From: Gammaproteobacteria bacterium
GTDB lineage: Bacteria > Pseudomonadota > Gammaproteobacteria > Pseudomonadales > Azotimanducaceae
Length of the DNA: 41,187 nt
Reading direction: 5' to 3'
Assembly (NCBI GenBank): GCA_028821515.1
Contig: JAPPGA010000039.1
Coordinates: forward strand, 166,181-207,367
Each line of letters begins with the position of its first letter. Positions within the stretch are counted from its first letter, which is position 1. Made by a program: the position numbers and the translations under genes. Of this stretch, positions 1 to 25,097 are shown piece after piece. The notes below the pieces were generated by a model, which saw only the letters and a list, made by a program, of their open reading frames with translations, made no database searches and was not told where the DNA came from.

Positions 1-90
1 TGCGAGGGGTGCCCCCCTCGCGCTCCCCGGCTGAGGGCTCTCTTTTGCGAGGGGTATCCCCCTCGCGCTCCCCGGCTGAGGGCTCCTCCA
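1..90 (-). repeat. Two 45-bp coding repeats (family A) forming the MurC C-terminal tail
   Basis: Bases 1-45 and 46-90 are two copies of the same 45-bp unit, and the array may continue beyond the left edge. Each holds CGAGGGG and CCCCTCG arms around a 4-base loop (7-bp stem). In the murC frame each unit encodes 15 residues, [15 protein letters not shown] or a close variant, so the enzyme ends in a charged repeat tail. The murC mRNA reads the complement of the polarity used in murD, so the same DNA sequence is translated as a completely different peptide. Confidence 0.9.
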
Positions 91-1450
91 GTCCCTGGGA
101 AACCCGGCTCACGTTGCCGGCACCCTGGACGATCAGCACGTCGTCGTCCCGGAGCAGCGACCCCAGCAGTTCCAGGGCCTCTTCCGGCGTCGCGGTGAAC
201 AGGGGATTCATGCCGCCGAAGCGCCGCACGCCGCGGCACAGCGCGCGCCCGTCCGCGCCCGCGATCACGTCTTCGCCGGCCGCATACACCTCGACGACCA
301 GCAACAGGTCGACAAGCAGGAGCACCTTGACGAAGTCGTCGTACAGCTCCTGGGTGCGCGTATATCGGTGGGGCTGGTAGACCATCACCAGGCGCCGTTC
401 GGGCCAGACGCTGCGCGCCGTTTCGATAACCACCCGCACTTCCGTCGGGTGGTGCCCGTAGTCATCGATCAGCGTGATGGACTTTCCGTTGACCACGCGA
501 GACCCGACTTCGAACCGCCGGCCCACGCCCCTGAAAGACTTAAGGCCGTCCACGATGTCGTCGTCGGAAACGCCCTCCTCCGTCGCGATCGCGATCGCAG
601 CGAGCGCGTTGGAAACGTTGTGCATGCCCGGCATCGGTATTTCGATGTCGAGATCCGAACCGTTCGGCCGCGTGGCCGTAAAGCTCCAGCGCATCCCCCC
701 TGGAACCACGTTCACCGCCCGGAAGTCCGCACCTTCGCGCAGCCCGTAGGTCACCACCGGCCGGGCAAAGTCGCCGATCATCGAACGCACGTTGTCGTCG
801 TCCACGCAAAGCACCGCCACGCCGTAGAAGGGCAGCCGGCCCACGAAGTCGAGGAAGGCGCGCTTGAGACGTTCGAAGTCGTTGCGGTAGTACGAAAGGT
901 GGTCCCGGTCGATATTCGTAACGACGGCGGCAATGGGCTGCAGGAACAGGAACGAGGCATCGCTCTCGTCCGCCTCCGCGACGATATAGCGCCCGGCACC
1001 TAACCTGGCGTTGCGCCCTTCGCCTTTCAGCAGCCCGCCGATCACATAGGTGGGATCCAGGCCGGCACGCTGAAAAATCGCGGTGATCAGGCTCGTGGTC
1101 GTTGTCTTGCCGTGCGTGCCTGCAACCGCGATGCCGTGCCGGTATCGCATGAGTTCGCCCAGCATCGCCGCACGGGATACGACGGGCACGCGTTCCTCCC
1201 GCGCCATCACCACCTCGGGATTCTTCCCGCTGATCGCGGCCGAAACCACAACCACGTCGGCTTCCCGCACGCTGTCGCCTCCGTGGCCGATATCGATGGG
1301 AATGCCCTGTCTCGCCAGGCGTTCCGTATTGGCGGAACACGCCATGTCTGAACCCGTGACGGTGTAGCCCTGGTTCAGGAGAACTTCCGCGATGCCGCAC
1401 ATACCGGAACCGCCAATCCCGACGAAGTGGATTCTCCTGACGCGGCGCAT
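1..1450 (-). CDS. murC: UDP-N-acetylmuramate--L-alanine ligase, partial (C-terminus runs off the window)
   Basis: MurC adds L-alanine to UDP-MurNAc in the cytoplasm, the first amino-acid step of the peptidoglycan peptide stem. The minus-strand frame opens with ATG at 1450 and reads [20 protein letters not shown], the Mur nucleotide-binding start. It continues with the ATP loop GTHGKTTTT, the motif [19 protein letters not shown] and QPHRYTR. The frame is still open at base 1, so 483 codons are visible. After the conserved end motif GAGNV at about residue 440 the chain passes into a repeat-derived tail (bases 1-90) instead of a normal C-terminus. The start lies 13 bp after the ftsW stop; murG, usually between these two genes, is absent. 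A TTG four codons upstream is an alternative start. Identity is very secure; the true C-terminus is unknown. Confidence 0.96.
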
Positions 1451-1463
1451 TCTCGCGTCCAAC

Positions 1464-2549
1464 TCACCGCCTCCCAAGGTTGTCACCCTCCAGGTGGGTC
1501 CTGAAAGCGAGCGCCAGGAGCGCCGTGCACACGAGCAGGCTGTTACCGCCAAAACTGATGAACGGCAGCGTCAGGCCCGTGGTCGGCAGGACGCCGGTGT
1601 TGACGCCGACACTGATCAGCACCTGCGCCCCGATCACGAGGCCCGCGCCATAGGCGAGGTAGGCCCCGAACAACCTTCCCTGATCCGCGGCGGCGCGCGC
1701 GATGGAGAACGTGCAAAGCACCAGGAACGCAAGCAGCACGATGAGGGCGCCGGCGCCGATCAGCCCGAGTTCTTCGGCGACGACCGCGAAAATGAAGTCG
1801 TTGTGCGCCTCCGGCAGATAGGCGAGTTTCTGCACGCCTTCGCCGAGACCGACACCGAGCCATTCACCGCGGCCGAAAGCGATCAGCGCCTGCGTCAACT
1901 GGTATCCGCCGCTGTGCGGCAGGGACCAGGGATCCAGGAACGCGACCAGCCGCTCCTCCCTGTAGACCTCCAGTCGCAGGAGAACGATGAGACCCACCGC
2001 GGCCGCGCCCGCTACACCAAGGAAGTGCCGCAGCCGCGCTCCAGCGAGCAACATGAGCCCTCCGGTCAGCAGGACCAGGAGCAGCGTGGTGCCGAAGTCG
2101 GGCTCGATCAGCACCAGGCCCGCGAGAACGCCCGCCCACGCCAGCGGCCGCAGGAATGCCCAGATGTCGTCCTGTACCGCATCCCCCGTGCGGGCAAAGT
2201 ACGCCGCCAGGTACACCACCAGCAGGAACTTCGCCAACTCCGAAGGCTGCAGGGTGAAGGCGCCGAGCCAGATCCAGCGATGGGCCCCGCCCGCCTCGAG
2301 ACCGATCCCGGGAATGAGCACCGCCGCACAGAGCGCGATGGCGGCGACCAGGCACCAGCGATGCAACGCTTCCCAGAGGCGGAGCGGGATGTTCGCGATC
2401 GCCGCGAACACGGCAAGCGCCGCCGCGACGAAGACGCAATGCCGCACCACGTAAGAATTCGCCGTGGCGGCCGACGCCACCATTACGACGCCGGCAGCAA
2501 GCGCGGTGAACCACGCCATCAGTACGGTTGTGCCGAACCGGTCAACCAT
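1464..2549 (-). CDS. ftsW: Peptidoglycan glycosyltransferase FtsW (SEDS family)
   Basis: FtsW is the polytopic SEDS glycosyltransferase that polymerises septal glycan strands with FtsI. The 361-residue protein is almost entirely hydrophobic segments joined by short loops. It shows SEDS landmarks: [27 protein letters not shown], the loop [20 protein letters not shown], and near the end [16 protein letters not shown] chose ATG 2549 ([10 protein letters not shown]), which overlaps the murD stop by 8 nt; the frame could extend to 2630, but those 27 residues lie within murD and lack SEDS similarity. RodA is the alternative family member, but the position between murD and murC fits FtsW. The next gene, 13 bp on, is murC; the expected murG is missing. 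Confidence 0.95.
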
Positions 2550-4104
2550 GCGTACCTGCCGCTCTGTCGACCGCCGCTCGAAATGCGTCGCCACGGGCCT
2601 CGAAGTTGTCGAACATGTCGAAGCTGGCACAGGCCGGCGACAACAGGATGGTTCCCCGCCCGCGGGCCGCCGCCAATGCCTTCGCGACGGCTCGATCCAT
2701 GTCGCTGGCCCGGCTGACGGGCACGATGCCGGCCAGCGCGGCTTCGATGCGGGGCGCGTCCCGCCCGATGAGCACGACGTGTTTCGCGTGGCGCGCGACC
2801 GGGTCCTTCAGGGGTTCGAACGAAGCGTTCTTGCCGTCACCTCCGGCGATGAGCACGATGTCCCGGTCTTCCCCGCCGAATCCATTGAGCGCGGCCACGC
2901 AGGCACCGACGTTGGTTGCCTTTGAGTCGTCGATACAGCGCACCGACCCCACCGAACCCACGAACGCCGAGCGGTGCGGAAGTCCGGGAAAGTCGAACAG
3001 CCGCCGAGGCTCGGCGCCGCTTCCCGTCAGCGAGGCGATGGCGCACGCTGCGAGAACATTGTAGGCGTTGTGACGTCCTCCGAGCTGGAAAGACGAAAGC
3101 GGGAATGGCGTACCGTCGATGATCACTTCATCCCCGTCCACCCGCCAGTTGGGGCATCCATTAAGGGCGATGGCGGGGGTTTCCGGGGGCGGCCGCGTGT
3201 GGGGATCGCTGCCATCGTAGACAGCCGCGCGACAACCAAGGTAAACGCGGCGTTTGGCCCGCACATACGCGTCGAAGGAGCCATGGCGATCCAGGTGGTC
3301 CGCGCTGATGTTCAGCACGGCCGCTATATCGAACGCTCCGGAGCCCATTCGCTCGAGCTGAAAGCTGGACAGTTCGAGCACATACCAGTCCACTTCAGAG
3401 CCTTCAGCCGGGGAGCGCGAGGGGGATGCCCCTCGCAGAAGAGAGCCTTCAGCCGGGGAGCGCGAGGGGGATGCCCCTCGCAGAAGAGAGCCTTCAGCCG
3501 GGGAGCGCGAGGGGGATACCCCTCGCAGAAGAGAGCCTTCAGCCGGGGAGCGCGAGGGGGATACCCCTCGCAGAAGAGAGCCTTCAGCCGGGGAAGTTTC
3601 CCCGACCGCTGACGCGTGAGGAAGTGCCGGCGTTGCGTCCGTCGCCGGAGGCGGACTTCGATGCAGGTCGAGCAGGTCGAGCGCCGGAACGCCGAGGTTC
3701 CCGCCGACACGCACGCTCCCCGACCCGCGGTCGAGGAGCTTCCCGACCATCGATGCCACCGTACTCTTGCCATTGGTGCCCGTGATGGCAATGACCGGCG
3801 CTCTGGCGAGGCCCAGGAACAGGTCGATGTCTCCCAGGATTTCGAGATCCGCGTCCCGCGCCCTTCGGGCGAGACAATGATCGAGTCCGATGCCTGGGCT
3901 GATGACGGCACGATCGAAGTCATCGAAATTCACCGCCGCCGGCTCGAGAAGCTCCGTGTCGGCGAATTCGGTCCGCGCCGCATCGAGGTAGGGCGGATTC
4001 GCCCGCGTGTCGCAGACCGCGACGGGTACTCGCCCATGGAGGGATTTCAGGCAGGAATATCCTGTCGCCCCCAGGCCGATAATCAGCGTCCGTTGCCCTG
4101 TCAT
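2542..4104 (-). CDS. murD: UDP-N-acetylmuramoyl-L-alanine--D-glutamate ligase with an in-frame repeat insertion
   Basis: MurD adds D-glutamate to UDP-MurNAc-L-Ala in the cytoplasm. The 520-residue product begins with the Rossmann motif [15 protein letters not shown], has the ATP loop [11 protein letters not shown] at about 107-117, and continues with [13 protein letters not shown] at about 241 and [10 protein letters not shown] further on. It is some 80 residues longer than the E. coli enzyme (438). The excess is one block, about residues 147-237, between the LLD end of the ATP-loop helix region and [11 protein letters not shown]. That block is encoded by the family A repeat element at 3398-3660. 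Frame and motifs on both sides are intact, so the gene looks functional. The ATG overlaps the mraY stop (ATGA). Confidence 0.96.
3398..3577 (-). repeat. Four tandem 45-bp family A repeats inside murD
   Basis: Units start at 3398, 3443, 3488 and 3533, with a fifth, partial unit starting at 3578. They are contiguous and almost identical: the first two have GATG in the loop and the last two GATA. Each contains CGAGGGG, a 4-base loop and CCCCTCG. In the murD frame each unit encodes 15 residues of the type [15 protein letters not shown]. The unit length is a multiple of three, so copy-number change would not shift the murD frame. Confidence 0.95.
3577..3660 (-). repeat. 84-bp family A core segment inside murD
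   Basis: Read on the minus strand from 3660 to 3577, this segment aligns without gaps to plus-strand 23243-23326 inside kdsC, with about 72 of 84 positions identical by hand. It is read in the same frame in both genes and encodes variants of [18 protein letters not shown]. In murD it leads directly into the 45-bp array. It contains the inverted pair GGGGAA and TTCCCC. Confidence 0.88.
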
Positions 4105-5183
4105 CGGATCTTCAGTGTCGAAAGGCCGATGAGCACCAGCACCAGGGCAATGATCCAGAATCGCACGATGACCCGGGGTTCGGGCCAGCCCTTGAGCTCG
4201 AAATGGTGGTGAATCGGCGCCATTCGGAAAACGCGTCTGCCGGTGGTCTTGAACGATGCCACCTGCATGATCACGGAAACGGTCTCGAGCACGAACAGAC
4301 CGCCCATGATGAGCAGAACGATCTCATGGCGGATGATGACGGCGACCAGTCCAAGCGCCGCTCCCAGCGCAAGGGCACCCACGTCTCCCATGAACACCTG
4401 CGCCGGGTAGGTGTTGAACCAGAGAAAACCGAGACCGGCGCCGATGAGCGCGCCGCAGAACACCGCCAGCTCACCCGCACCGGCCACGTAGGGAATCTGC
4501 AGGTAGCTCGCGAACTCGACGTGTCCGGCCAGGTAGGCGATGAAACCCAGTCCGGCGCTCACCATCACTGCGGGGAGAATGGCCAGGCCATCCAGCCCGT
4601 CCGTGAGGTTGACCGCATTGCTCATGCCGACCACCATCAGGTAGGCAATCGCGACGAACCCCACGCCGAGCGGAATGGCCACCTCCTTGAAGAAGGGCAC
4701 GATGAGGCTGGTGTCGGATGGGGTCGCTGCGAGTTCGTAGAGGATGACAGCCGCCGCGAGGCCGACGACGGACTGCCAGAAGTACTTCCACCTGGCCGAG
4801 AGGCCCTTCGCGTCTCCCTTCGACACCTTGAGGTAGTCGTCGTACCAGCCGATCACGCCGAAGCACAGTGTGACCGCCAACACGATCCAGACGTGCCGGT
4901 TGGCGGGGTCGCACCAGAGGACCGTCGTCAACAACGTCGTCACGAGAATCAGGGCGCCGCCCATGGTCGGCGTGCCGGCCTTGTGCAGGTGGGTCTCCGG
5001 CCCTTCCTCGCGCACGGTCTGGCCGATCTGGAAATAGGCGAGCTTGCGAATCATGAGCGGCCCGACGGCGAGCGATACCGCCAGCGCGGTCAAGGCGCTC
5101 ACCATGGTGCGGAACGTGATGTACTGGAACACGCCAAAGACGCCAACGTACTCGGCCAGGTACTCGGTGAAGCGCAGCAGCAC
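4101..5183 (-). CDS. mraY: Phospho-N-acetylmuramoyl-pentapeptide transferase
   Basis: MraY is the inner-membrane enzyme that moves phospho-MurNAc-pentapeptide onto undecaprenyl phosphate, forming lipid I. The 360 residues match the family length. Visible motifs are the PTMGG loop after the first membrane segment, GWYDDYLK (catalytic aspartates), [25 protein letters not shown] and the histidine triad in [13 protein letters not shown]. The start is GTG at 5183, directly after the murE TAG; an AGGAGG site inside the end of murE lies 6 nt upstream. MurF is normally encoded between murE and mraY and has no room here. Confidence 0.97.
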
Positions 5184-6614
5184 CTACACCCTCCTACCAT
5201 CGAGGGCGGCCTGCGCGAAACGCAGGTCGCTGTGCGGGATCCGTTCTTCCCCAAGGTCCTGGAAGTCCTCGTGGCCCTTGCCTGCGATCAGCACGACATC
5301 GCCAGCTCCGGCGCGCTCGACGGCCATCCTCACCGCCGCCGTCCGGTTCGGCTCGACGGTGTAGAAGCCGGGCGAAGTGAAGCCGGCCACGATATCCGAG
5401 ATGATCGACTCTGGATTCTCGGTACGGGGATTGTCCGACGTCACGATCGCCGAGTCCGCGCCCTCCTCCACGGCCATCGCCATCATGGGCCGCTTGCCCG
5501 GATCACGATTCCCGCCGCAGCCGAATACACATGTGAGACGGCCCCGAAGGTGTTGGCGCACTGCGGCAAGCGCCGCAGAGAGCGCCGCCGGCGTGTGGGC
5601 GTAGTCGATGAAGACCACCGGGCCCGAACAGTTCGGTGACGCCACGCGCTGCATCCGGCCCGGCACCGGCATCATGCAACGCATTTGGGCCACGGCGTCG
5701 TCGAACGGCTTGCCCGCGAGACACACCGCAGACAGGGTTGCGGCAGCGTTGTACAGGGAAAACTCCCCGTGAAGGGGCAACCAGAAACGGCTATCGCCCC
5801 AGGGCGTATGCCATCGACCCGTTATGCCGTGCGGATGAAAGCCTGGTTCCGACCACGAGACCGCAGCATTCGGCGACAGGCCGTAGCCTATCGTCCTGGC
5901 GTCGACTTCCGCGGCCAGGCCTCGACCGAAAGGGTCGTCCAGGTTGAGGACGGCGGTGCCGAGGGAGGGCATCTCAAACAGCCTGCGTTTTGCCGCCGCG
6001 TAGCGTTCCATCGTGCCGTGGTAATCGAGGTGGTCGCGCGTCAGGTTGGTGAGCACTGCGATGTCGAAACGCACGGCCGCGACGCGATCCTGTTCCAGCG
6101 CATGCGAACTGACTTCCATCGCCACACGCTTGTGGCCTTCGCCTCGCATGCCCCCGAGCCGACGCTGGACGGTCACCGCGTCTTCCGTGGTCAACTTGCT
6201 CCGACACAGCCGCGCGATGTCGCCCCACCCGATGGTGCCCATATACGCCGTATCGTCCAGCAGCGAAGCGCACTGATAGGCGACCGATGTCTTGCCGTTG
6301 GTGCCCGTGACGCCGATGCAGGCAAGGGCGGCACTCGGATCGCCGAAGTACCGTGCCGCTATTTCTCCCTGGCGGACGCGGAGGTCGCTCATCACGACGT
6401 TGGGAACACAAGCGGCGACGGGCCGCTCCGAACACACGGCCGCGGCGCCGCGGGCAACCGCTTCATCCACGTGGCGATGGCCATCGTCCACCTCGCCCGC
6501 ACATGCGAGGAACAGATCCCCTGCCGATACGCGCCTCGAGTCGTTGGCAACGCCCGTTACGACAGTCGCGCCACCCGTGCCCAGGAGTTGGTCAAGAGTT
6601 TTGGCTGTTGTCAT
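5184..6614 (-). CDS. murE: UDP-N-acetylmuramoyl-tripeptide synthetase (meso-diaminopimelate adding)
   Basis: MurE adds the third stem residue. The 476-residue protein has the ATP loop GVTGTNGKTS, the segment AMEVSSHALEQDRV, TNLTRDHLDYHG and FIDYAHTP. The motif DNPRTENP is the family signature for meso-diaminopimelate rather than lysine, as expected for a Gram-negative. Length is near the E. coli enzyme (495), so this is not a MurE-MurF fusion. ATG at 6614 overlaps the ftsI stop in an ATGA junction, indicating translational coupling. The downstream neighbour should be murF but is mraY. Confidence 0.97.
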   Translation of the reverse strand: MTTAKTLDQLLGTGGATVVTGVANDSRRVSAGDLFLACAGEVDDGHRHVDEAVARGAAAVCSERPVAACVPNVVMSDLRVRQGEIAARYFGDPSAALACIGVTGTNGKTSVAYQCASLLDDTAYMGTIGWGDIARLCRSKLTTEDAVTVQRRLGGMRGEGHKRVAMEVSSHALEQDRVAAVRFDIAVLTNLTRDHLDYHGTMERYAAAKRRLFEMPSLGTAVLNLDDPFGRGLAAEVDARTIGYGLSPNAAVSWSEPGFHPHGITGRWHTPWGDSRFWLPLHGEFSLYNAAATLSAVCLAGKPFDDAVAQMRCMMPVPGRMQRVASPNCSGPVVFIDYAHTPAALSAALAAVRQHLRGRLTCVFGCGGNRDPGKRPMMAMAVEEGADSAIVTSDNPRTENPESIISDIVAGFTSPGFYTVEPNRTAAVRMAVERAGAGDVVLIAGKGHEDFQDLGEERIPHSDLRFAQAALDGRRV

Positions 6615-8380
6615 GCTACGCCTCCTTCATGGAACAAACGCCTCGTCGGAAAGCCAGCAACCGCGGGCGGTTGTTGCGCGGTCGAGGAGCGGAGCCGGGC
6701 CAGAAGCGACGCCGCGAGCGTCGACTCTGGGGTGGCCGGAGCGAGATGGTCGGGGGCAACGCCAAGAATGCGGAGCGCGCGCGCCATGACCCGTGCGAAA
6801 ACCGGTGCCGCGACGCTGCCGCCGCCAATCGCCACGCCCCGGGGCTCATTGATGACCACGACGAGGACGATTCTCGGATCGGCCGCCGGTGCGAAACCCG
6901 CAAACAGGGCAACGTGCCGCCCGTCATCGTATCCGCCCGCGGAAACCTTGCGCGTGGTTCCCGTCTTTCCCGCCACGCGATAACCGCGAACCGCCGCCTT
7001 CGGCGCCGTGCCCACTGTGCTCACGACCTGCTCCAGCATCCGCGAGACCTCGCGCACATGACCCTCCTCGAACACCCGGATACCCGCCAGGTCCACCGTC
7101 TGCTTGAGCACGCCTACCGAACGCCTTACGCCGCCCGACGCCAGCGTCAGGTAGCACCGCGCAAGCTGCATCGGTGTGACCGTCAGACCGTAGCCGTATG
7201 CCAGCGTGGTGCGGCCGATCGGCTTATCTAGGTCCTGGGAGGTGAGCACGCCGAACGTCTCTCCCGGCAGGCCCGATCCGGGTGACTCGCCAAACCCCGC
7301 GCGTACCATGACATCGAACACCGCGTCCTGCCGCAGATCCAGGGCGATCTTCGTGATCCCGACCTGGCTCGACTTCGCCAGCACCTGTGCAAGTGTGATC
7401 ACGCCTCGATTGCTGGGATCCTCGATCAGCTTCCTTCCCACGAAGACATGGCCCGGCGACGTATCCACAGTGGTTTCCGACGTATATCGACCGCTTTCCA
7501 GGGCGGCCAGCGCGGTGAGCGGCTTGACGGTCGACCCCGGCTCATACGCGTCTGTCACGGCCCGGTTGCGAACACCCTTCGATACCCGTGCCGCCGTATT
7601 GTTCGGGTTGTAGGAGGGTTGGTTCGCGAGCGCCAGGACCTCTCCGGTGCGGGCATTGAGCATGATCAGCGACCCTGACTCGGCATTGTTGTGCTCGACT
7701 GCCGACTTCAACTCGCGATAGGCCGAGAACTGCAGCCTGAGATCGAGGCTCACGGTGATGTCATTGCCCATGTCCCGGTCGAGAAATCCCAGTTCCTCCA
7801 CGGTGCGCCGGTGGTTGTCGAGCAATACCCGTTTGCTGCCCGGCTTCCCCTTGAGCAGGGAGTCAAAGGTGAACTCGATGCCTTCCTGGCCGACGTCATC
7901 GATGTTCGTCATGCCCACGATATGCGCCGTGGTCTCGGCGGCGGGATAGAAGCGCCTGTACTCGGAAAGGGATCGCACCCCGTCGATGCCGAGTTCCCGG
8001 ACGGCCCGGTCGATCTCCGGACTGACGTGTCGTTTGAGATACGCGAATCGCCTGCCCGAGTTGGCCACGCGGCGTTCGAGCGCCGCCGGCGAAACTCTCA
8101 AGACCTCGCCGAGCGTGGCCAACTCATCGGCCGAGAGGGTTGCCTTGCTAGGATCCATCCAAATCGAGTGGACCGGCGTACTGACCGCCAGGAGTTCGCC
8201 ATGCCGGTCGTAGATGACTCCCCGATGCGCGGGGATGCTCACCGTTCGCACGGCAATGGCCTCGCCCCGCTGCTTGAGGAAATCCCGCCGTTCGGTCACG
8301 CTCAGGTAAGCGACACGTGCCAGCAGCCCCACGACCGAAATCATGAAAAACGCGACCAGCATGTAGTGGCGCCACTTCAC
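6611..8380 (-). CDS. ftsI: Septal peptidoglycan transpeptidase (penicillin-binding protein 3)
   Basis: FtsI crosslinks septal peptidoglycan in partnership with FtsW. The 589-residue protein has a short cytoplasmic tail, one membrane segment (about residues 7-27), the periplasmic dimerisation domain beginning RGVIYDRHGELLA, and a transpeptidase domain. The catalytic SxxK box is S283-T-V-K286, the second motif is SSQ at 337-339 (usually SSN in the family) and the third is KTG at 472-474. The start is GTG at 8380, overlapping the ftsL stop by 4 nt. Position and length exclude PBP2 of elongation. The Asn-to-Gln change in the second motif is a mild oddity. Confidence 0.96.
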   Translation of the reverse strand: MKWRHYMLVAFFMISVVGLLARVAYLSVTERRDFLKQRGEAIAVRTVSIPAHRGVIYDRHGELLAVSTPVHSIWMDPSKATLSADELATLGEVLRVSPAALERRVANSGRRFAYLKRHVSPEIDRAVRELGIDGVRSLSEYRRFYPAAETTAHIVGMTNIDDVGQEGIEFTFDSLLKGKPGSKRVLLDNHRRTVEELGFLDRDMGNDITVSLDLRLQFSAYRELKSAVEHNNAESGSLIMLNARTGEVLALANQPSYNPNNTAARVSKGVRNRAVTDAYEPGSTVKPLTALAALESGRYTSETTVDTSPGHVFVGRKLIEDPSNRGVITLAQVLAKSSQVGITKIALDLRQDAVFDVMVRAGFGESPGSGLPGETFGVLTSQDLDKPIGRTTLAYGYGLTVTPMQLARCYLTLASGGVRRSVGVLKQTVDLAGIRVFEEGHVREVSRMLEQVVSTVGTAPKAAVRGYRVAGKTGTTRKVSAGGYDDGRHVALFAGFAPAADPRIVLVVVINEPRGVAIGGGSVAAPVFARVMARALRILGVAPDHLAPATPESTLAASLLARLRSSTAQQPPAVAGFPTRRLFHEGGVA

Positions 8381-9587: not shown

Positions 9588-9602
9588 TGCATCACGACCG
9601 CA

Positions 9603-10214: not shown

Positions 10215-10234
10215 AACTGTTTGAAAAGGAAGGA

Positions 10235-10584
<350 letters not shown>

Positions 10585-13282: not shown

Positions 13283-13619
13283 ACGCGCCGAGCGCAAGGC
13301 GCGGCGTCACCTCGAACGGCGCGGCCTCAAGACCATCGCCCGGAACTATTCGCGGCCGTACGGCGAGATCGATCTCGTCATGCGGGATGGGCCAGTGGTG
13401 GTCTTCATCGAGGTACGCTACCGGGGTCCCGGGTCGTGGCTCGACGGGGTTCATTCCGTCGACGCGGCGAAGCGGCGCCGCCTGACAAGGGCCGCCGAGT
13501 CCTTCCTTCAGGCGCACCCGGAATACGACACCGATCCGACAAGGTTTGACGTGGTATCGGTGTCGAGGACAAACTTTGGCAGACGAATCGAATGGGTGGC
13601 AGATGCGTTCACGGGCTAA
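13254..13619 (+). CDS. yraN: YraN family (UPF0102) endonuclease-fold protein
   Basis: The 121-residue protein has the family core: GRRAERKARRHLERRGLKTI, RPYGEIDLVMRDG, VVVFIEVRYRG and a closing EWVADAF. The Glu/Asp and ExxR-like residues resemble Holliday-junction resolvase folds, but the biochemical role is not firmly established. ATG 13254 lies inside the end of lpoA (29-nt overlap); longer upstream frames are overlap with lpoA. In relatives diaA follows yraN, then dolP; here a family B repeat takes the place of diaA. Confidence 0.9.
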   Translation: MRTWRQRAGRRAERKARRHLERRGLKTIARNYSRPYGEIDLVMRDGPVVVFIEVRYRGPGSWLDGVHSVDAAKRRRLTRAAESFLQAHPEYDTDPTRFDVVSVSRTNFGRRIEWVADAFTG

Positions 13620-13627
13620 GGGCTTGA

Positions 13628-13727
13628 GCCGTAGAACGGCACGCCGTGCCGAACAAGGCGCAAGACCGCAGGTGGGCTTGGGCGGGGGTGGAATGCGGCG
13701 CGCCGAGGGGCCGACGAATTTCATGGC
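13628..13727 (+). repeat. Dispersed ~100-bp repeat, family B, copy 1
   Basis: This copy aligns with 41049-41145 (same orientation) and 28354-28454 (reverse). Shared blocks are GCCGTAGA, a hairpin CGGCAC-3 bases-GTGCCG, the invariant GGTGGGCTTGGGCGGGG, GGCGCGCC and a terminal TTTCATGGC. It begins 8 bp after the yraN stop and reaches into the start of dolP. Confidence 0.9.
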
Positions 13728-14250: not shown

Positions 14251-14368
14251 TGTTCCGTCAAGCCTAAATATGCGAGTGCCCCACAGCCGACGCCTCCGGC
14301 TTCGGCTGTGGCCCGGCCCCGCTCGTCGACCGCAGATACCCGTAGATCTGGGTTTGACGGAGCACTAG
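14247..14368. mobile_element. MITE-like element with 18-bp terminal inverted repeats
   Basis: The left end CTAGTGTTCCGTCAAGCC (14247-14264) and the inverted right end CTAGTGCTCCGTCAAACC (14368-14351 on the minus strand) match at 16 of 18 bases. Both sit at TA dinucleotides, consistent with a TA target duplication as in the IS630/Tc1 group (inference). Inside is a perfect 10-bp stem, CCACAGCCGA (14281-14290) with TCGGCTGTGG (14302-14311), and a small CAGAT/ATCTG pair. It has no coding capacity. It lies between convergent dolP and sspB, so the stem could also end transcription. Confidence 0.65.
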
Positions 14369-14417
14369 GGCGGCTCAGACCTCCCGCGTCGCTGCGAGGC
14401 GCGGATGTACGAAACTA

Positions 14418-17602: not shown

Positions 17603-17603
17603 G

Positions 17604-18215: not shown

Positions 18216-18256
18216 GAGGAGACCTCTCCCTCAACTCAACCGGTGCGTTGCGTTGC

Positions 18257-18273
18257 TTTCCCATAACGGGAAA
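18257..18273 (-). other. Perfect 6-bp hairpin between rpsI and petA
   Basis: On the minus strand TTTCCC, a 5-base loop and GGGAAA form a perfect stem immediately after the rpsI stop and before petA. There is no following U-run, so it may protect the rpsI mRNA end or attenuate readthrough rather than terminate strongly. Confidence 0.4.
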
Positions 18274-18278
18274 CGGCA

Positions 18279-18671
18279 CTAACGCTTGGAGAATTGCGGA
18301 CGCTTGCGGGCCTTGCGCAGCCCAACTTTCTTGCGTTCCACTTCTCTCGCATCGCGCGTAATGAAACCCGCGCGGCGCAAATCCGTGCGCAACGTCTCGT
18401 CGTACTCGACCAATGCGCGTGCCACGCCGTGACGAATCGCACCCGCCTGACCGGATGCGCCACCGCCTTTTACCGTAACCCTGATATCGAACCGGTCCAC
18501 GACGTCGGCCACCTCCAGCGGCTGCCGGATAATCATGCGGGCCGTTTCACGGCCAAAATACTCGTCGATGGGCCGACCGTTCACGACAATCCGGCCGTTG
18601 CCGGGAGACATGAACACCCGCGCCGTGGACGTCTTGCGCCGACCCGTGCCATAGCTGTACGGCTCTGCCAT
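18279..18671 (-). CDS. rpsI: 30S ribosomal protein S9
   Basis: S9 binds the head of the 30S subunit, and its C-terminal tail reaches the P-site tRNA. The 130 residues equal the E. coli length: [55 protein letters not shown], and the basic end [19 protein letters not shown] 18671 has GGAG about 8 nt upstream. The frame stays open upstream to 18815, but that stretch is low-complexity repeat and not S9-like. The 169-bp spacer to rplM is unusually long for this operon. Confidence 0.97.
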
Positions 18672-18693
18672 TCGACTATTCTCCGCCACTATT

Positions 18694-18789
18694 CTCTTCC
18701 GCTCTTCCGCTCTTCCGCTCTTCCGCTCTTCCGCTCTTCCGCTCTTCCGCTCTTCCGCTCTTCTGCTTTTCTGCTCTTCTGCTTTTCTG
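18694..18789 (-). repeat. 8-bp tandem repeat in the rplM-rpsI spacer
   Basis: Eight perfect copies of CTCTTCCG (plus strand, 18694-18757) are followed by four imperfect copies (18758-18789). On the mRNA strand this is CGGAAGAG repeated, so each unit presents a purine-rich, Shine-Dalgarno-like GGAAGAG. The last unit ends 22 bp before the rpsI start. Eight bases is not a multiple of three. Confidence 0.95.
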
Positions 18790-18840
18790 CTCTGCTCTGC
18801 GCTCTCCGCCGCCATTCTCCGCCGGTATTCTCTACCAGCC

Positions 18841-19278
18841 CTACTGGACCTGTAACTGCAGCGGCTTCGGCTGTTGCGCCGAGTGAGGGTGCTCGGACCC
18901 GGCGTAGACCTTGAGCTTGCGGAATACGGCGCGGCCGAGCGGATTGCGGGGCAGCATGCCCCTGACCGCCTTCTCGATCACCCGTTCGGGGTGTTTCTCA
19001 ATCATCTCTTCGAAACGTGCCGCCTTGATTCCGCCGGGGTAGCCGCTGTACCGGTAGTAGATCTTGTCGGTATGCTTCTTGCCCGTGACGCGAACCTTCT
19101 CCGCGTTCACCACCACGATGTAGTCACCGGTATCCACATGCGGCGTATACGAGGGCTTGTGCTTGCCGCGCAGCCGTCGCGCGACCGCCGCCGCCAAACG
19201 CCCAAGCGTCTGATTTTCGGCATCCACGACATACCAGTCGTGCTGGACGTCCTGTGGACGCGCGCTCAGGGTCTTCAT
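18841..19278 (-). CDS. rplM: 50S ribosomal protein L13
   Basis: L13 is an early-assembly 50S protein. The 145 residues (E. coli 142) contain [17 protein letters not shown] near the start, [35 protein letters not shown] and the C-terminal signature [20 protein letters not shown] followed by [12 protein letters not shown] 19278 lies about 20 nt after a predicted transcription start. It is the first gene of the rplM-rpsI operon, which may read on into petABC and sspAB. Confidence 0.97.
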
Positions 19279-19305
19279 CCGGAGGGCCTGAAATTCGGAG
19301 GCGCG

Positions 19306-19334
19306 ATTTTACCGGCCGACCCCCGCAATCGCAA
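19306..19334 (-). promoter_or_regulatory. Predicted sigma-70 promoter of rplM
   Basis: On the minus strand, TTGCGA (19334-19329) and TAAAAT (19311-19306) are separated by exactly 17 bp. The -10 differs from consensus by one base. Transcription would begin near 19298, giving a leader of about 20 nt. Confidence 0.7.
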
Positions 19335-19383
19335 CCAAGGTGCGGGTTTCCGGGCGAGTTCAGGGATAGTGCGCCAACCGCGG

Positions 19384-20460: not shown

Positions 20461-20469
20461 GCCGCGGCG

Positions 20470-21774
20470 TCAGCTTTCGTCGAGTCGCGCCAGCGCCGCC
20501 AGGGCGTGCGCCCGAAGCCCCTCCGCTTCCGCGATGGCGGCTGCGGTTTGCGCCAGCTCGCGCACACCGCGCCGGCCGATTCGGACAACCGAACTGCGCT
20601 TGAGGAAGTCGGCGACGCCCAGGGGCGACGCGTACCGCGCCGTGCCGAACGTCGGCAGCACATGACTCGGTCCCGCGCTGTAGTCGCCGAATACTTCCGC
20701 AGAATAGCCGCCGAGAAAGATCGCTCCAGCGTTTCGCACCTTAGGCAGCAATGCCTCGGGATCGGCCACCGCGAGCTGCAGGTGTTCCGGCGCGACGCGG
20801 TTCGCGATGGCCACGGCCTCGTCGAGATCGCGGGTCCTGATCAGCGCGCCCCGGGCGCCGAGCGAGGCGCCGATGATCCGGGCGCGCGCCATTTCCGGCA
20901 GCGCCGTTGTCATCCGCTCCGCCACGGCATCCAGGTAGTCTGCATCGGGACAGAGCAGCAGTGCCTGCGCCGCCGCGTCGTGTTCGGACTGGGAGAACAT
21001 GTCAAGCACCGTCCAGTGTACCGGCACGCTGCCATCGGCAACGATCAGCACCTCGCTGGGACCGGCAATGCTGTCGATCCCCACGGGACCGAATACCTGG
21101 CGCTTGGCGGCGGCGACATGGGCGCCGCCGGGACCGACGATCTTGTCCACCCTGGCAACCGTCTCGGTACCAAAAGCCAGGGCCGCGATGGCCTGTGCCC
21201 CGCCGATGGCGAAGACTTCATCCACGCCGGCGATGTCGAGCGCCGCCAGGACGTGTTCGTTTCGCTCGCCGTTCGGGGCCGGCACCGTCACCGCCACCTC
21301 GCGAACGCCCGCCACACGCGCGGGAATCACCGTCATCAGAACCGTGGACGGATACGCCGCCTGCCCGCCGGGGACGTAGACGCCAACGCGGGCAAGCGGC
21401 GCGAGGCGCTGACCGAGACGATTGCCCAGACCGTCCTCGTACTCGAACGCCCCGCCTTGCTGGAGTTGCAGCTCGTGGTAGCGTCGGATGCGCCGCGCTG
21501 CCGTGACGAGAGCTTCAGCCTGCGGTTCGGGCAAGCGCTGTCGACAGTCGGACAGCATCCCGGCGTCGATGCGCAACGCGTCTACGGCGGGCGCGGCCAC
21601 CCCATCGAATCGTGCCGTGTAGTCGAGAAGGGCCGCGTCGCCGCGCTTCCGCACATCCCCCAGCACCCGAGCGACGGATTCCTCGACTTCACGCCGGGTC
21701 GGGTCATCCCAATGGATGAGCCTCTCCAGCGCATCATCGAAGTCGCGTGATGCCGTGTCCAGGCGGTTGATCAC
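20470..21774 (-). CDS. hisD: Histidinol dehydrogenase
   Basis: HisD is a zinc enzyme that oxidises L-histidinol to L-histidine in two NAD-dependent steps. The 434 residues equal the E. coli length. Visible motifs include RVGVYVPGGQAAYPSTVLM, KIVGPGGAHVAAAKRQVFG, GPSEVLIVADG, MFSQSEHDAAAQALLL (zinc ligands) and RVAPEHLQLAV (catalytic Glu-His). The start is GTG 21774, sharing one base with the ibaG stop. In relatives murA and hisG sit between ibaG and hisD; both are absent here. Confidence 0.96.
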   Translation of the reverse strand: MINRLDTASRDFDDALERLIHWDDPTRREVEESVARVLGDVRKRGDAALLDYTARFDGVAAPAVDALRIDAGMLSDCRQRLPEPQAEALVTAARRIRRYHELQLQQGGAFEYEDGLGNRLGQRLAPLARVGVYVPGGQAAYPSTVLMTVIPARVAGVREVAVTVPAPNGERNEHVLAALDIAGVDEVFAIGGAQAIAALAFGTETVARVDKIVGPGGAHVAAAKRQVFGPVGIDSIAGPSEVLIVADGSVPVHWTVLDMFSQSEHDAAAQALLLCPDADYLDAVAERMTTALPEMARARIIGASLGARGALIRTRDLDEAVAIANRVAPEHLQLAVADPEALLPKVRNAGAIFLGGYSAEVFGDYSAGPSHVLPTFGTARYASPLGVADFLKRSSVVRIGRRGVRELAQTAAAIAEAEGLRAHALAALARLDES

Positions 21775-22013
21775 TACGGATCGTCTGCGGCTACGGTACG
21801 AATGGTCACCGCATGCACGGTCCCATCGCGGATCAGGTCGCCAATGGCCTCATAGACGAGTTGCTGCTGCCTGACGCGGCTCAACCCCCTGAAGGCCGCG
21901 CTTGCGACCATCACGTCGAAACGGTTCCCCTCGCCGGTGACCTCGACCTCGGCCTCACCGAGGTGATCACGGATCAAGTCTCGGAGGGTCGATTGTTCCA
22001 AGGGCGCGTTCAT
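21774..22013 (-). CDS. ibaG: BolA-family iron-sulfur/acid stress protein IbaG
   Basis: IbaG is a small BolA-like protein that partners with monothiol glutaredoxins in Fe-S handling. The 79 residues from ATG 22013 show RFDVMVASAAFRGLSRVRQQ followed by LVYEAIGDLI and VHAVTIRT, with the conserved histidine. An in-frame extension to 22124 is not family-like. Neighbours are divergent yrbG and overlapping hisD. IbaG is preferred over BolA because of position and sequence. Confidence 0.9.
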   Translation of the reverse strand: MNAPLEQSTLRDLIRDHLGEAEVEVTGEGNRFDVMVASAAFRGLSRVRQQQLVYEAIGDLIRDGTVHAVTIRTVAADDP

Positions 22014-22139
22014 GGTCGGCGCTGAGGTTATCACGGTCCACCCGTCGTCCATGGTGGCCGGGCTGAACGCCGATGCGCCTGATTGACGCAGCCGTGCCAA
22101 TGTTGCAATGCTTGAGGTCACCATTCCGCGAAATCCTCT

Positions 22140-23099
22140 ATGTGGCTTCCCGTCCTGGGTCTGATCGTCGGCTTCATCACTCTGGTATGGAGTGCGGACC
22201 GATTCGTGGCGGGCGCGGCGGCGACGGCGAACAACCTCGGGGCATCCAAGATCCTCATAGGTCTGACGGTCGTCTCCATCGGCACGTCAGCGCCGGAAAT
22301 CCTGGTGGCCCTCGCCGCCGCCATTGAAGGCACGTCAATCCTTGCCATAGGCAACGCGATCGGTTCGAACATCGCAAACATCGGGTTGGTGCTGGGCGTG
22401 ACCGCCATGGTCGCGCCGCTGCCGTTCGCGGCGTCGGTGTTGAAGGTGGAACTGCCATGGCTGATCGGCGCGACCCTGCTCGCGCTGTTCTGTCTGCACG
22501 ACCTCCACCTCGGCGTGGTCGACGGGTTTCTGCTGGTGGCCGGACTGAGCCTGATCATCCACCGACTGGTGCGGGCGCAGCGGCGGAAACCGGAGTTGCC
22601 TGATTCGATCCAGGAGGAACTGGACGAACTGGAAGACTTGCCGATGGCGCGCGCTCTCGTCTACCTCATCATCGGTCTGGGCGTGCTGCTCGCGTCCGCG
22701 CAGACGCTCGTCTGGGCTGCGACGGAAGTCGCCGAGTACCTCGGCGTCAGCGAACTCATCATCGGCCTTACCGTGATCGCCATCGGCACGAGTCTGCCGG
22801 AGCTCGCAGCCACCCTCGCCGCCGCCATCAAGGGACATCCGGACATCGCCATCGGCAATGTCGTCGGCTCAAACATCCTCAACATCGTCGCCGTGCTGGC
22901 GGTTCCGGCACTGGTGACACCCGTGGGCTTCGACACCCAGGTGTTGTGGCGGGATTTCGGCACCATGGCCGCGCTGACCCTGCTACTCGTCCTGTTCGCC
23001 TACGGATTCGGCTCGCGGCCGATCATCACGCGCTTTGAAGGATGCATCCTTGCACTGAGCTGGATCGGCTACAACGTGCTGCTATATACCCAGGCATGA
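22140..23099 (+). CDS. yrbG: Calcium/sodium antiporter family protein YrbG
   Basis: This 319-residue inner-membrane protein belongs to the CaCA exchanger superfamily. The two alpha repeats are clear: SIGTSAPEILVALAAAIEG with AIGNAIGSNIANIGLVLG near residue 45, and AIGTSLPELAATLAAAIKG with AIGNVVGSNILNIVAVL near 220. About ten hydrophobic segments surround an acidic loop (EELDELEDLP). Physiological substrate is not proven for this family. It overlaps kdsC by 4 nt (ATGA); kdsD, usual in between, is absent. Confidence 0.93.
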   Translation: MWLPVLGLIVGFITLVWSADRFVAGAAATANNLGASKILIGLTVVSIGTSAPEILVALAAAIEGTSILAIGNAIGSNIANIGLVLGVTAMVAPLPFAASVLKVELPWLIGATLLALFCLHDLHLGVVDGFLLVAGLSLIIHRLVRAQRRKPELPDSIQEELDELEDLPMARALVYLIIGLGVLLASAQTLVWAATEVAEYLGVSELIIGLTVIAIGTSLPELAATLAAAIKGHPDIAIGNVVGSNILNIVAVLAVPALVTPVGFDTQVLWRDFGTMAALTLLLVLFAYGFGSRPIITRFEGCILALSWIGYNVLLYTQA

Positions 23100-23773
23100 A
23101 ACACCCCGGCGCTGAGATCTTTCCCGCGTCCGCGCTCGCGCTCGCGCGGGACATTGACCTCCTGATCCTGGATGTGGACGGCGTGTTGACGGACGGCCGC
23201 ATCTACTATGCGGATTCCAGCGGCCTGTCGCAGGGCTTTCGTGGAAGCACGCCTCCGGCAACGGGGGAAACGCCGGCACTTCCCTACGCGTCAGCGGTCG
23301 GGGCAACTCCCCCGGCTGAGGGCTCTGGTGAACAGGGGGGCGAAATCAAGGCGTTCCATGCGCAGGATGGAGCGGCCATCAAGATGCTCCAGGCGGCGGG
23401 TATCCCCGTCGCCGTGATCACGGGCCGCTCTTCCGGGGCCACGGCACGACGCGTGTCCGAACTCGGTATCGCCCACGTTTACCAGGGTGTTGAAGACAAG
23501 ACCGCCGCCCTCGGCACACTGTGCAGCGAGTCCGGCATGATGGCGGAACGAATGGCCCATGCCGGAGACGACATACCGGACCTGGCGCTGTTCGACCGCG
23601 TCGGCATGCGGCTGTCAGTGCCACAGGCCCATCCGGAGGTCGCCGCGCGAGCGGACTACGTCACTGCGGCCAGCGGCGGCGCCGGGGCCGTCCGCGAAAT
23701 CTGCCATCTCATCCTCATTGCCAAGGGGCTCTGGGAGTCCGCCCTGACCGAGGCGGGCGCATGGCCCCGGTGA
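23096..23773 (+). CDS. kdsC: 3-deoxy-D-manno-octulosonate 8-phosphate phosphatase with an in-frame repeat insertion
   Basis: KdsC removes phosphate from Kdo-8-phosphate, giving Kdo for lipopolysaccharide core. From ATG 23096 the protein is 225 residues versus 188 in E. coli. HAD motifs are intact: D26 and D28 in LILDVDGVLTDG, VITGRSS, a conserved Lys region VYQGVEDKTAAL, and AGDDIPDLALFDRVG, with ADYVTAASGGAGAVREICHL at the end. The additional residues, about 44-81, lie between the IYYADSSG strand and EIKAFHAQDG, that is, in the beta-hairpin flap typical of KdsC. They are encoded by the family A core (23243-23326). ATGA coupling to yrbG and 13-nt overlap with lptC. Confidence 0.94.
   Translation: MKHPGAEIFPASALALARDIDLLILDVDGVLTDGRIYYADSSGLSQGFRGSTPPATGETPALPYASAVGATPPAEGSGEQGGEIKAFHAQDGAAIKMLQAAGIPVAVITGRSSGATARRVSELGIAHVYQGVEDKTAALGTLCSESGMMAERMAHAGDDIPDLALFDRVGMRLSVPQAHPEVAARADYVTAASGGAGAVREICHLILIAKGLWESALTEAGAWPR
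23243..23326 (+). repeat. 84-bp family A core segment inside kdsC
   Basis: This matches the core inside murD at about 72 of 84 bases with no gap, in the same reading frame, giving the peptide block PPATGETPALPYASAVGA. It ends with GGCTGAGGGCTCT, the beginning of a 45-bp unit, but no tandem units follow. In murD the same core continues into four units. Confidence 0.88.
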
Positions 23774-24354
23774 TTCGCCGATACGCCGCCGCGGCCATAT
23801 CCGCGTTGGTGCTTACGCTGGCCTACATGTATTCCGGGGAACGAACGCCTTCCCCCCTTCCCCCGGAACTTGCGGATGAACCCGACATCTACATGGAAGG
23901 TGCAACCATCACCAGGTACGGGGCCGACGGGGACGTCCGCTACCGGCTCCGGGCCGACCGGATCAAGCAGTTCGAGGAACGCAGCATCACCTATTTCGAC
24001 AACCCGGTCATCCGCCTGAGTCAGAAGTCGGGGCCGCCCTGGGAGGCGAACGCCTCGCGCGGGGAGATCCGGGAGCGGGCCGTCAACGATGGCGAAAAGG
24101 AAGAGCACCTGCTTCTGCGCGACAACGTGGAACTGACGAGACGGTACGACGACGGACGCCTGTTCGCACTGACAACGGCCGTGCTCGATGTCTATCCGGC
24201 GCGGCAATACGCGCGCACGGACCAAGCTGTTATGATCGAGACTTCCGGCAGCAAGACGACGGCCTCGGGATTCGAGGCCGACATGGAACGCGGATGGATG
24301 AAGCTGCTATCGGGGCCGGGCCGACAGGTCCAGGGCGTTATCGAGCCACACTGA
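23761..24354 (+). CDS. lptC: LPS export protein LptC
   Basis: LptC is a single-pass periplasmic protein that links the LptB2FG transporter to LptA. The 197-residue chain starts MAPVIRRYAAAAISALVLTL (membrane anchor), then has the LptC-type beta-jellyroll with DIYMEGATITRYGADGDVRY, DNPVIRL, LLLRDNVELTR and LDVYPARQYARTDQAV. ATG 23761 overlaps kdsC by 13 nt. Lies between kdsC and lptA as in most gammaproteobacteria. Confidence 0.9.
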   Translation: MAPVIRRYAAAAISALVLTLAYMYSGERTPSPLPPELADEPDIYMEGATITRYGADGDVRYRLRADRIKQFEERSITYFDNPVIRLSQKSGPPWEANASRGEIRERAVNDGEKEEHLLLRDNVELTRRYDDGRLFALTTAVLDVYPARQYARTDQAVMIETSGSKTTASGFEADMERGWMKLLSGPGRQVQGVIEPH

Positions 24355-24374
24355 CGGATTCCCCGAAACCACCG

Positions 24375-25097
24375 ATGTCTTCTGCACGGCGCGGACCTTT
24401 CCTGTTCGCGCTACTGGTGTTCGGCTCCCCGGGAGGGCTTGCGGAACAGGCGCACGGCCTGCCGGACGACGCCAATCAACCGATACACTTCCGCGCCGAC
24501 AACGTGGAAGGCGATCTTCTCGTCGGCGGGCTCTCGTCTTCCACGGCCGACGACGCATCCGCTGACTCCCCGGTCAAACGTGTGGTGGCCACGGGTTCCG
24601 TGCAAATCGGCCAGGGATCGATGCGACTCACGGCGGACCGGGTCGTCATCGAGAGCGAGGGCGACCGGATCACCCTGATGGATGCCCAGGGTGAACCCGC
24701 CCGCTACCGGCAGCAGACGGAACCCGGCGCAGGATTCATCGAGGCCCGCGCGTCCAACATCATCTATCGTCCGGCCGACGCGCGCATCGAGTTGATCGGG
24801 CGCGCCTTCCTCACCCGTGACAGCGACGAGTTCCGCGGCGAGGTAATCACCTACGACATTCGCCAGGGCAAAGTCGTAGCCACCGGCGAAACCAAAGGCG
24901 TCGAGATGATTATTCAGCCAGGGAGCGCGAGGGAGAGCCCTCAGCCAGGGAGCGCGAGGGAGAGCCCTCAGCCGGGGAGCGCGAGGGGGGACCCCTCGCA
25001 GGAAAACAGCCTTCAGCCGGGGAGCGCGAGGGGGGACCCCTCGCAAGAAAACAGCCCCTCGCATGAAGACAGCCCGTCCCAGGAAAACAGCCCGTAA
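24375..25097 (+). CDS. lptA: LPS periplasmic bridge protein LptA with a repeat-derived C-terminal tail
   Basis: LptA forms the periplasmic bridge carrying LPS to the outer membrane. From ATG 24375 the protein is 240 residues, longer than E. coli (185). A signal peptide (MSSARRGPFLFALLVFGSPG) precedes the jellyroll: PIHFRADNVEG, VVATGSVQIGQGSMRLTADR, ASNIIYRPADARIEL, FRGEVITYDIRQGKVVA. From about residue 181 the chain becomes a low-complexity tail of QPGSARGDPSQENSL-type repeats to the stop. This tail is family A repeat read in a third frame. It sits where the C-terminal LptA-LptD contact would be, so effect on assembly is uncertain. Confidence 0.9.
   Translation: MSSARRGPFLFALLVFGSPGGLAEQAHGLPDDANQPIHFRADNVEGDLLVGGLSSSTADDASADSPVKRVVATGSVQIGQGSMRLTADRVVIESEGDRITLMDAQGEPARYRQQTEPGAGFIEARASNIIYRPADARIELIGRAFLTRDSDEFRGEVITYDIRQGKVVATGETKGVEMIIQPGSARESPQPGSARESPQPGSARGDPSQENSLQPGSARGDPSQENSPSHEDSPSQENSP
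24915..25094 (+). repeat. Family A repeats, partly shortened, forming the LptA tail
   Basis: Units are 24915-24941 and 24942-24968 (27 bp, lacking the distal part), 24969-25013 and 25014-25058 (full 45 bp, stem CGAGGGG-GGA-CCCCTCG), then two 18-bp sub-repeats 25059-25076 and 25077-25094. Every length is a multiple of three. TAA follows at 25095. Confidence 0.93.

What the first reader, a model, noticed from the sequence alone, without database searches (positions are those of the whole stretch)
1..25097. Family A is an undescribed-looking protein-coding palindromic element, open in three frames and on both strands
Within 25 kb the element occurs inside four genes (murC, murD, kdsC, lptA), all in envelope biogenesis, and never between genes. 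The 45-bp unit keeps its frame and lacks stops in murC frame (EPSAGERE), murD frame (SPAEGSLL) and lptA frame (QPGSARGD). Rickettsia palindromic elements are the known precedent for in-frame intragenic repeats; I do not recognise this sequence as one of them.
Basis: partly seen in the sequence, partly recalled or inferred. Interest (0 to 1): 0.88.

Follow-up and report, generated by a model that had tools for sequence, protein, structure and literature searches.

The report
Mobile palindromic repeat inside core genes
A short, mobile, palindromic DNA repeat found in a few related bacteria sits mostly between genes, but some copies have landed inside core genes without breaking the reading frame, adding about 29 amino acids that look tolerated rather than useful.

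Summary
The repeat is real, and in the window it lies in frame in murC, murD, kdsC and lptA. murD and kdsC carry internal inserts; murC and lptA carry C-terminal tails. Genome-wide, "never between genes" is wrong: of 98 repeat clusters in 77 sampled stretches, 55 are intergenic, 22 overlap a gene end and 21 lie within an ORF. The genic copies are genuine insertions: 11 genes carry an internal core copy (MurD, KdsC, DnaE, MetG, ZipA, a PilT-like gene and others), and for 10 of 11 a relative lacks it. The core is an 87-nt unit (3 x 29) placed beside GGAG, with internal inverted repeats, no terminal inverted repeats and no long target duplication. Nine of the 11 share one reading frame (FHGSTPPATGxxPALPYASAVGEAPPAEGS); the codon phase of the target plus stops in other frames explain most of this. 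Shared inserts evolve almost neutrally while their hosts are constrained. Best reading: a new REP/RPE-like family, seen in one genus and, diverged, in one other of its family, whose genic copies are tolerated passengers. In-frame intragenic REPs are already described (PMC3733652).

The parts
1..86 (-). Two 45-bp U units forming part of the C-terminal tail of MurC ([15 protein letters not shown]...); the tail runs on beyond the window
   Evidence: in relative G003 the same tail is five 45-bp units ending inside the core element
2..1402 (-). murC, incomplete at the window edge; Mur ligase domains end at aa 429, before the tail
2542..4104 (-). murD with in-frame internal insert (aa about 146-235 of 520); the only above-cut-off MurD-like N-domain hit in the genome
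3397..3576 (+). Four tandem 45-bp U units inside murD (one unit in G003)
3577..3667 (+). Family A core element inside murD, read on the opposite strand as [29 protein letters not shown]
23096..23773 (+). kdsC with in-frame internal insert
23236..23326 (-). Family A core element inside kdsC, read as FRGSTPPATGETPALPYASAVGATPPAEGS
   Evidence: absent from G003, G005, G004, G008, G002
24294..25097 (+). lptA (LptD_N domain) with a repeat-encoded C-terminal tail; true start may be further in
24913..25055 (+). U-type units in the lptA C-terminal tail (QPGSARGDPSQENS...); shorter in G003, different in G005

Best explanation
This is a REP-like mobile palindromic element of narrow distribution. The core is 87 nt, inserted directly 3' of a GGAG tetranucleotide: GGAG|CCTTCAGCCGGGG..TCCCCGACCGCTGACGCGTAAGGAAGTGCCGGC..GGCGTACTTCCATGGAAG. 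Each half holds an imperfect inverted repeat. A second 45-bp module (core head plus a GCGAGGGG/CCCCTCGC hairpin) expands in tandem. Copies are retained mainly between genes. Because the unit is 3 x 29 nt and one reverse frame is open and linker-like, a minority of insertions into coding GGAG/CTCC sites give full-length proteins with a 29-residue Pro/Ala/Gly/Ser-rich insert and survive purifying selection. SHOWN: copy number, context, sites empty in relatives, GGAG at a minority of comparable junctions, in-frame reading, frame bias, relaxed evolution of shared inserts. INFERRED: that the inserts are translated and form flexible loops, that each half folds as a hairpin in single strands, and that movement is by a single-strand HUH (Y1, IS200/IS605 or RAYT-like) enzyme acting in trans. 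No such enzyme was found in this genome.
For: Copies: 110 head matches against 5 control. Context: 55 intergenic, 22 gene-end, 21 within-ORF of 98 clusters. Relatives lacking the insert for 10 of 11 genes with an internal core: MurD and KdsC; PilT-like, CoA-transferase, GT/Kdo kinase, DnaE, MetG, sulfatase, GlcE-like and amidohydrolase; none seen for ZipA, where G003 is filled. GGAG stands at the junction in the empty relative at 5 of 11 comparable core sites (PilT-like, MetG, L167, L190, sulfatase). Forty of 65 aligned core copies begin GGAG and 34 of 65 have a net length of exactly 87. Targets by codon phase: classes with a stop-free consensus reading hold 9 insertions per 1262 targets; classes that meet a stop hold 2 per 3211, both with that stop mutated (Fisher p 0.0003). 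Shared inserts against the rest of five genes, G000 vs G003: nonsynonymous:synonymous 25:10 vs 127:212, p 0.0002. Solved MurD 8dp2_A has 2 residues where this MurD has 91; solved KdsC 3n07_A has none where this one has 39. A MurD-like N-domain is found once above cut-off.
Against: No Y1_Tnp match in this genome (3 candidates scored). The 12 Y1 loci of relatives show no core or U copy within their flanks of up to 1500 bases, four of them cut by contig ends. Y1 does not track the element: present in G001 and G006, where no core passed the threshold. The minimum-energy fold of the consensus joins both halves in one long imperfect stem (-36.2 kcal/mol, no shuffle control) instead of two hairpins. 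No compensatory change in the first 18 stem pairs over 38 copies; pairing equals shuffles (0.805 vs 0.807). GGAG is not seen at 6 of 11 comparable junctions. Strand bias in complete G005 is not significant (p 0.07 and 0.147). The stretches were chosen around copies, so the intergenic retention figure (36 core copies per 684 targets) is inflated. Genes were called by my own codon-usage script. No structure model was obtained. Translation was not observed.
Confidence: 0.72

Rival explanations
1. The element is an adaptive coding cassette: it is kept in envelope and other genes because the encoded peptide is useful, and it evolved to be protein-coding.
For: Nine of 11 internal core copies use the same frame; 45-bp array numbers change in multiples of three nt in murD.
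Against: Most copies are not within genes. Open-frame number equals shuffles. Frame bias is largely given by target phases: 773 of 1262 open-class targets are of that phase, leaving p 0.007-0.012. The commonest target class (2017 of 4473) is closed by a stop in the consensus. Little codon-phase rhythm in conservation over 41 copies (0.889/0.875/0.860). Shared inserts evolve near neutrally.
Confidence: 0.08
2. A MITE moved by a classical DDE transposase of an insertion sequence.
For: Short, non-coding, high-copy, presence/absence differs between close relatives.
Against: Its two ends are not inverted repeats of each other (sequence) and the aligned empty sites show no duplication beyond 2-4 shared nt. 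No search for DDE transposases was made.
Confidence: 0.12
3. A structured RNA or transcription-terminator family rather than a mobile element; genic copies are accidents.
For: Mostly intergenic and gene-end positions; inverted repeats in the sequence.
Against: No Rfam match in the window; no compensatory changes in the main stems; insertion at unrelated sites including inside core genes.
Confidence: 0.05

Closest known systems
Rickettsia palindromic elements (RPE) and CGTC-tagged REPs
   Same: Interspersed palindromic repeats with in-frame copies inside many unrelated genes, including dnaE; described in PMC3733652 (read: section 15, section 4 part 1 of 4, section 17 part 1 of 2, and passages)
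   Different: CGTC families have 8-9 bp stems with A-T in the first two positions, 4-5 base loops and a CGTC end. Here the inserted unit is 87 nt, begins after GGAG, and comes with a separate 45-bp tandem module, in a gammaproteobacterium
GTAG-tagged REPs / BIMEs / REPINs
   Same: Tetranucleotide at one end, inverted repeats, mostly intergenic with a minority inside ORFs, tandem clusters (PMC3733652)
   Different: Tag is GGAG, outside the listed variants GYAG, GYRG, GTRG, GTMG, GTGG; longer unit; no flanking RAYT gene found
IS200/IS605-type single-strand transposition and derived non-autonomous elements
   Same: Insertion next to a fixed tetranucleotide, hairpins near the ends, no terminal inverted repeats, no target duplication (general knowledge, recalled; only the start of the abstract of PMC6006769 seen, in the listing)
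   Different: No Y1 transposase match in this genome and no autonomous copy seen

Membership tests
GTAG-type REP | Terminal GTAG (or listed degenerate forms) next to the stem | tested here: not met
   40 of 65 copies begin GGAG, 13 AGAG; GGAG is not among the forms listed in PMC3733652 section 4 part 1
GTAG-type REP | Short stem-loop of 20-40 bp | tested here: not met
   Net unit 87 nt in 34 of 65 copies; size definition from the abstract of PMC3733652
GTAG-type REP | Mostly intergenic, minority inside ORFs | tested here: met
   55, 22 and 21 of 98 clusters
RAYT-associated REP/REPIN | Y1 transposase gene flanked by the repeat | tested here: not met
   No PF01797 match in G000; no core or U copy in 12 Y1 loci of relatives, flanks up to 1500 bases, four cut short
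RPE / CGTC repeat | CGTC end, stem beginning with two A-T pairs, CCA-like tail | tested here: not met
   Consensus of 41 copies read by eye against the description: a CGTC beside a possible stem on the reverse strand is followed by AGC
RPE / CGTC repeat | In-frame copies inside ORFs of known function | tested here: met
   11 genes, 10 with a relative lacking the insert
Classical MITE | Terminal inverted repeats | tested here: not met
   Ends GGAGCCTTCAGCC and CTTCCATGGAAG are unrelated (by eye)
Classical MITE | Target-site duplication | tested here: not met
   13 sites aligned to empty relatives, at most 2-4 shared nt where the junction is readable
IS200/IS605-derived element | Fixed target tetranucleotide on one side | tested here: inconclusive
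   GGAG present in the empty relative at 5 of 11 comparable core sites; not seen at six
IS200/IS605-derived element | Mobilised by a Y1 HUH transposase | not testable with these tools
   needs experiment; no gene match in G000
Rfam RNA family | Covariance-model match | tested here: not met
   Only RNase P RNA in the window at gathering thresholds

The most novel reading that the evidence does not exclude
A palindromic mobile element with a GGAG target, 87 nt (3 x 29) long and lacking any Y1/RAYT partner is spread by an as yet unidentified enzyme. Its length and its one open linker-like frame make it a natural frame-preserving linker cassette that keeps adding peptides to core enzymes such as MurD, DnaE and MetG.
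Probability: 0.3. Interest if true: 0.68.

Novelty: new variant of a known kind. Interest (0 to 1): 0.5.

Why it matters
It gives another case, outside Rickettsia and with filled and empty sites in close relatives, for a question raised by RPEs: do repeats enter genes because the peptide is useful, or because some insertions can be tolerated? Here target phase, insert length and stop codons account for most of the pattern, and the inserts evolve nearly freely. It also marks positions in MurD, KdsC, DnaE, MetG and a PilT-like protein that take 29 or more extra residues, which could be of use for protein engineering.

Tried and rejected
Envelope-gene preference: rejected, because other hosts include DnaE, MetG, amidohydrolase, sulfatase and CoA-transferase.

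RAYT in cis: not supported.

Covariation support for the stems: none (the last three pairs I wrote for the second half were mis-specified and should be ignored; the three compensatory cells found lie in the last four pairs).

Two separate hairpins: the minimum-energy fold does not show them; they are my reading of the inverted repeats.

Strand bias in G005: not significant.

Frame bias as proof of coding selection: weakened once target phases were counted.

Multiple-of-three net length: the automatic count gives 10 of 13 'through' copies against 20 of 36 intergenic and 10 of 16 gene-end. The three exceptions are L131 (85 by the aligner but 87 net when I compare with the G003 empty site by hand), L171 (C-terminal tail) and a truncated second ZipA copy. 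Counted per gene it is 11 of 11 against 20 of 36, p 0.0085; weak support only.

Literature searches found no paper on this repeat. They covered only the held open library; one search covered the letters of the head and hit one unrelated paper.
Full report
OBSERVATION. Family A has two modules. The core is about 91 bases including its 5' tetranucleotide; the consensus of 41 copies is GGAGCCTTCAGCCGGGGGAGCTTCCCCGACCGCTGACGCGTAAGGAAGTGCCGGCATTTCCCCCGTCGCCGGAGGCGTACTTCCATGGAAG. The U module is a 45-bp unit made of the core head plus a GCGAGGGG/CCCCTCGC hairpin; it forms tandem arrays, and in some loci sits inside the first half of a core. The 16-base head with at most 2 mismatches occurs 110 times in the 4,037,002-base, 86-contig genome, against 5 for the reversed control. 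The listings score or show only part of the candidates, so a few weak copies were not followed.

GENE CONTEXT. I fetched 76 stretches around the listed copies. With the window they make 77 sources and about 615 kb, 64% GC. I called genes with a simple codon-usage script trained on them, with the repeats masked in the second run. About 85% of the sampled bases are coding. Of 98 repeat clusters, 55 are intergenic, 22 overlap a predicted gene end, 10 lie within a gene with coding signal on both sides and 11 lie within an ORF with weak signal on one side. One cluster is counted twice and a few are weak hits. In 35 stretches from related MAGs there are 46 clusters: 14 too near a stretch end to judge (7 core, 7 U), 31 other core clusters (16 intergenic, 13 at gene ends, 2 within genes, both shared with this genome) and one U cluster within a gene. 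In the complete relative G005, in the overlapping loci of the first 30 exact copies, 33 of 37 clusters show no gene running through; 1 is internal and 3 are gene-end readings, two of them the same place. A further set that I picked for arrays and for known genic copies in G003 and G005 gave 4 internal, 2 gene-end, 1 edge and 14 other of 21. So 'never between genes' is a property of this window only.

GENIC COPIES. Eleven genes carry an internal, in-frame core: MurD, KdsC, an amidohydrolase (L125), MetG (L149), DnaE (L148), a GlcE-like FAD protein (L184), ZipA (L197; one full and one partial copy), a sulfatase (L132), a glycosyltransferase/Kdo kinase (L161), a PilT-like ATPase (L194) and a family III CoA-transferase (L131). 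Seven were 'through'; L132, L161, L194 and L131 were 'through?' there and are accepted because relatives show the same gene without the insert. The names PilT, DnaE, MetG, ZipA, GlcE and HflX are my readings of the Pfam domains. HflX (L171), MurC and LptA carry tails. U units also lie inside a few ORFs, among them L145 (lacking in G005). A relative lacking the insert was found for 10 of the 11. MurD: G005, G004, G002, G008, G006 and G007 lack it, and G003 has it with one U unit where this genome has four (in one search the G002 and G008 rows were on the wrong strand). KdsC: G003, G005, G004, G008 and G002 lack it. The other eight are; the amidohydrolase comparison (G004) is diverged at the junction. 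ZipA is filled in G003 too, and no relative lacking it was seen. MurD is probably not duplicated: one above-cut-off MurD-like N-domain hit in the genome, the other two hits being below the cut-off, one of them at murC. Against solved structures the MurD insert replaces residues 153-154 of chain 8dp2_A, and the KdsC insert falls between residues 43 and 44 of 3n07_A.

INSERTION ANATOMY. Filled and empty sites aligned side by side (13 sites; 12 carry a core and one, L145, a U array) show the unit placed directly after GGAG where the junction is clear. For example, on the element strand at L190 the empty site reads cGGAGacatg and the filled one cGGAG-CCTTCAG...GGGGAG-acatg. Of the 11 core sites whose junction can be compared, GGAG stands in the empty relative at five (PilT-like, MetG, L167, L190, sulfatase) and not at six, which are diverged there. 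No duplication beyond 2-4 shared bases is seen, and the ends are not inverted repeats. The net length is exactly 87 in 34 of 65 core copies. Each half holds an imperfect inverted repeat, but the minimum-energy fold joins the halves in one long stem.

WHY ONE FRAME. Nine of the 11 internal cores, plus the HflX tail, are read on the reverse strand in one frame, giving FHGSTPPATGExPALPYASAVGEAPPAEGS. MetG and the PilT-like gene use a forward frame whose consensus stop is mutated in both copies. I counted GGAG and CTCC in predicted genes of the 77 sources by codon phase: 4473 targets. Three of six phase classes give a stop-free consensus reading (1262 targets, of which 773 are the used class). The most frequent class (2017) runs into a stop. 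Insertions: 9 in the open classes and 2 in the stop classes, p 0.0003. The preference for one of the three open classes has p 0.012 (9 of 9) or 0.007 (10 of 10 with HflX). Thus target phase plus stops explain most of the frame bias; a modest residue may reflect poor tolerability of the Arg-rich alternative. The number of open frames itself is what shuffles give (3 against 2.99; U tandem 5 against 4.13).

SELECTION ON THE INSERTS. Five genes with a core shared by G000 and G003 (MurD, GlcE-like, ZipA, sulfatase, HflX tail) give 25 nonsynonymous and 10 synonymous changes in the inserts, and 127 and 212 elsewhere (p 0.0002). Without ZipA the figures are 9:1 against 80:144, p 0.0009. The sulfatase insert is identical in both genomes and the HflX one has a single change, so the signal rests mainly on MurD and ZipA. 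Core copies show little three-base conservation rhythm. The inserts look like tolerated passengers.

DISTRIBUTION. The exact 25-base core was found in 35 stretches of genome contigs, all from four MAGs labelled Gammaproteobacteria or Pseudomonadales, and in no viral contig. G005 has the length of OX638346.1, and G003 matches the copy spacing of COS4_bin_29. In the family, 7 of 206 genomes have a match at 1e-6: 5 of this genus, this genome included, and 2 diverged ones of one other genus. In the class sample only this genome does (1 of 369). No plasmid or phage match.

MECHANISM. A tetranucleotide on one side, inverted repeats, no inverted ends and no duplication are what single-strand HUH transposition would leave (recalled knowledge of IS200/IS605 and RAYT-REP systems). 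Against it, no Y1 transposase match was found in this genome, the Y1 genes of relatives are not flanked by the repeat within the loci held, the stems show no compensatory changes and strand bias is not significant. The moving enzyme remains unknown; other transposase families were not searched for.

COMPARISON. PMC3733652 (read: section 15, section 4 part 1 of 4, section 17 part 1 of 2, and passages) describes GTAG and CGTC REPs, mostly intergenic, with in-frame copies in dnaE, uvrA, tRNA synthetase and other genes, and relates RPE-4 and RPE-6 to the CGTC type. This element works like those but meets neither tag nor size definition, so I file it as a new variant of a known kind.

Noticed in passing
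window 13614-13700, 28382-28468, 41035-41120: A second interspersed repeat (family B): 9 places in 7 of 77 sources, other copies 76-85% alike, 1 of 9 within a predicted gene.
   Followed up: partly
L135:3301-3490; window 6630-6732 and 14275-14370: A third repeat family (C), 20 places in 16 sources, 2 of 20 within a predicted gene; in the window a 76% match overlaps the C-terminus of the penicillin-binding-protein gene 6611-8380. Flanks of several U arrays match it.
   Followed up: partly
window 18670-18805: An 8-bp tandem repeat (CTCTTCCG) at the 5' end of ORF 18279-18815 (minus), next to ribosomal L13, encoding an [12 protein letters not shown] extension if translated; a period of 8 would shift frame with each unit gained or lost. 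That the ORF is ribosomal S9 is recalled, not tested; my gene finder starts it after the repeat.
   Followed up: partly
murC, beyond the window edge: The MurC tail of this genome is interrupted by a run of N (gap or withheld), so its true length is unknown.
   Followed up: no
window 10233-10583: RNase P RNA, bacterial class A, minus strand.
   Followed up: no
G005 chromosome: Copies tend to lie on one strand over one arc (40 of 55 clusters concordant with a two-arc split), but permutation p is 0.07.
   Followed up: partly
L111, L112, L117, L118: A Y1-type transposase-like protein with a DDHAHFLVEA/LIEA motif in G004, G006 and G007; PF01797 matches also in G001, G003 and G005, none in this genome, G002 or G008.
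   Followed up: partly
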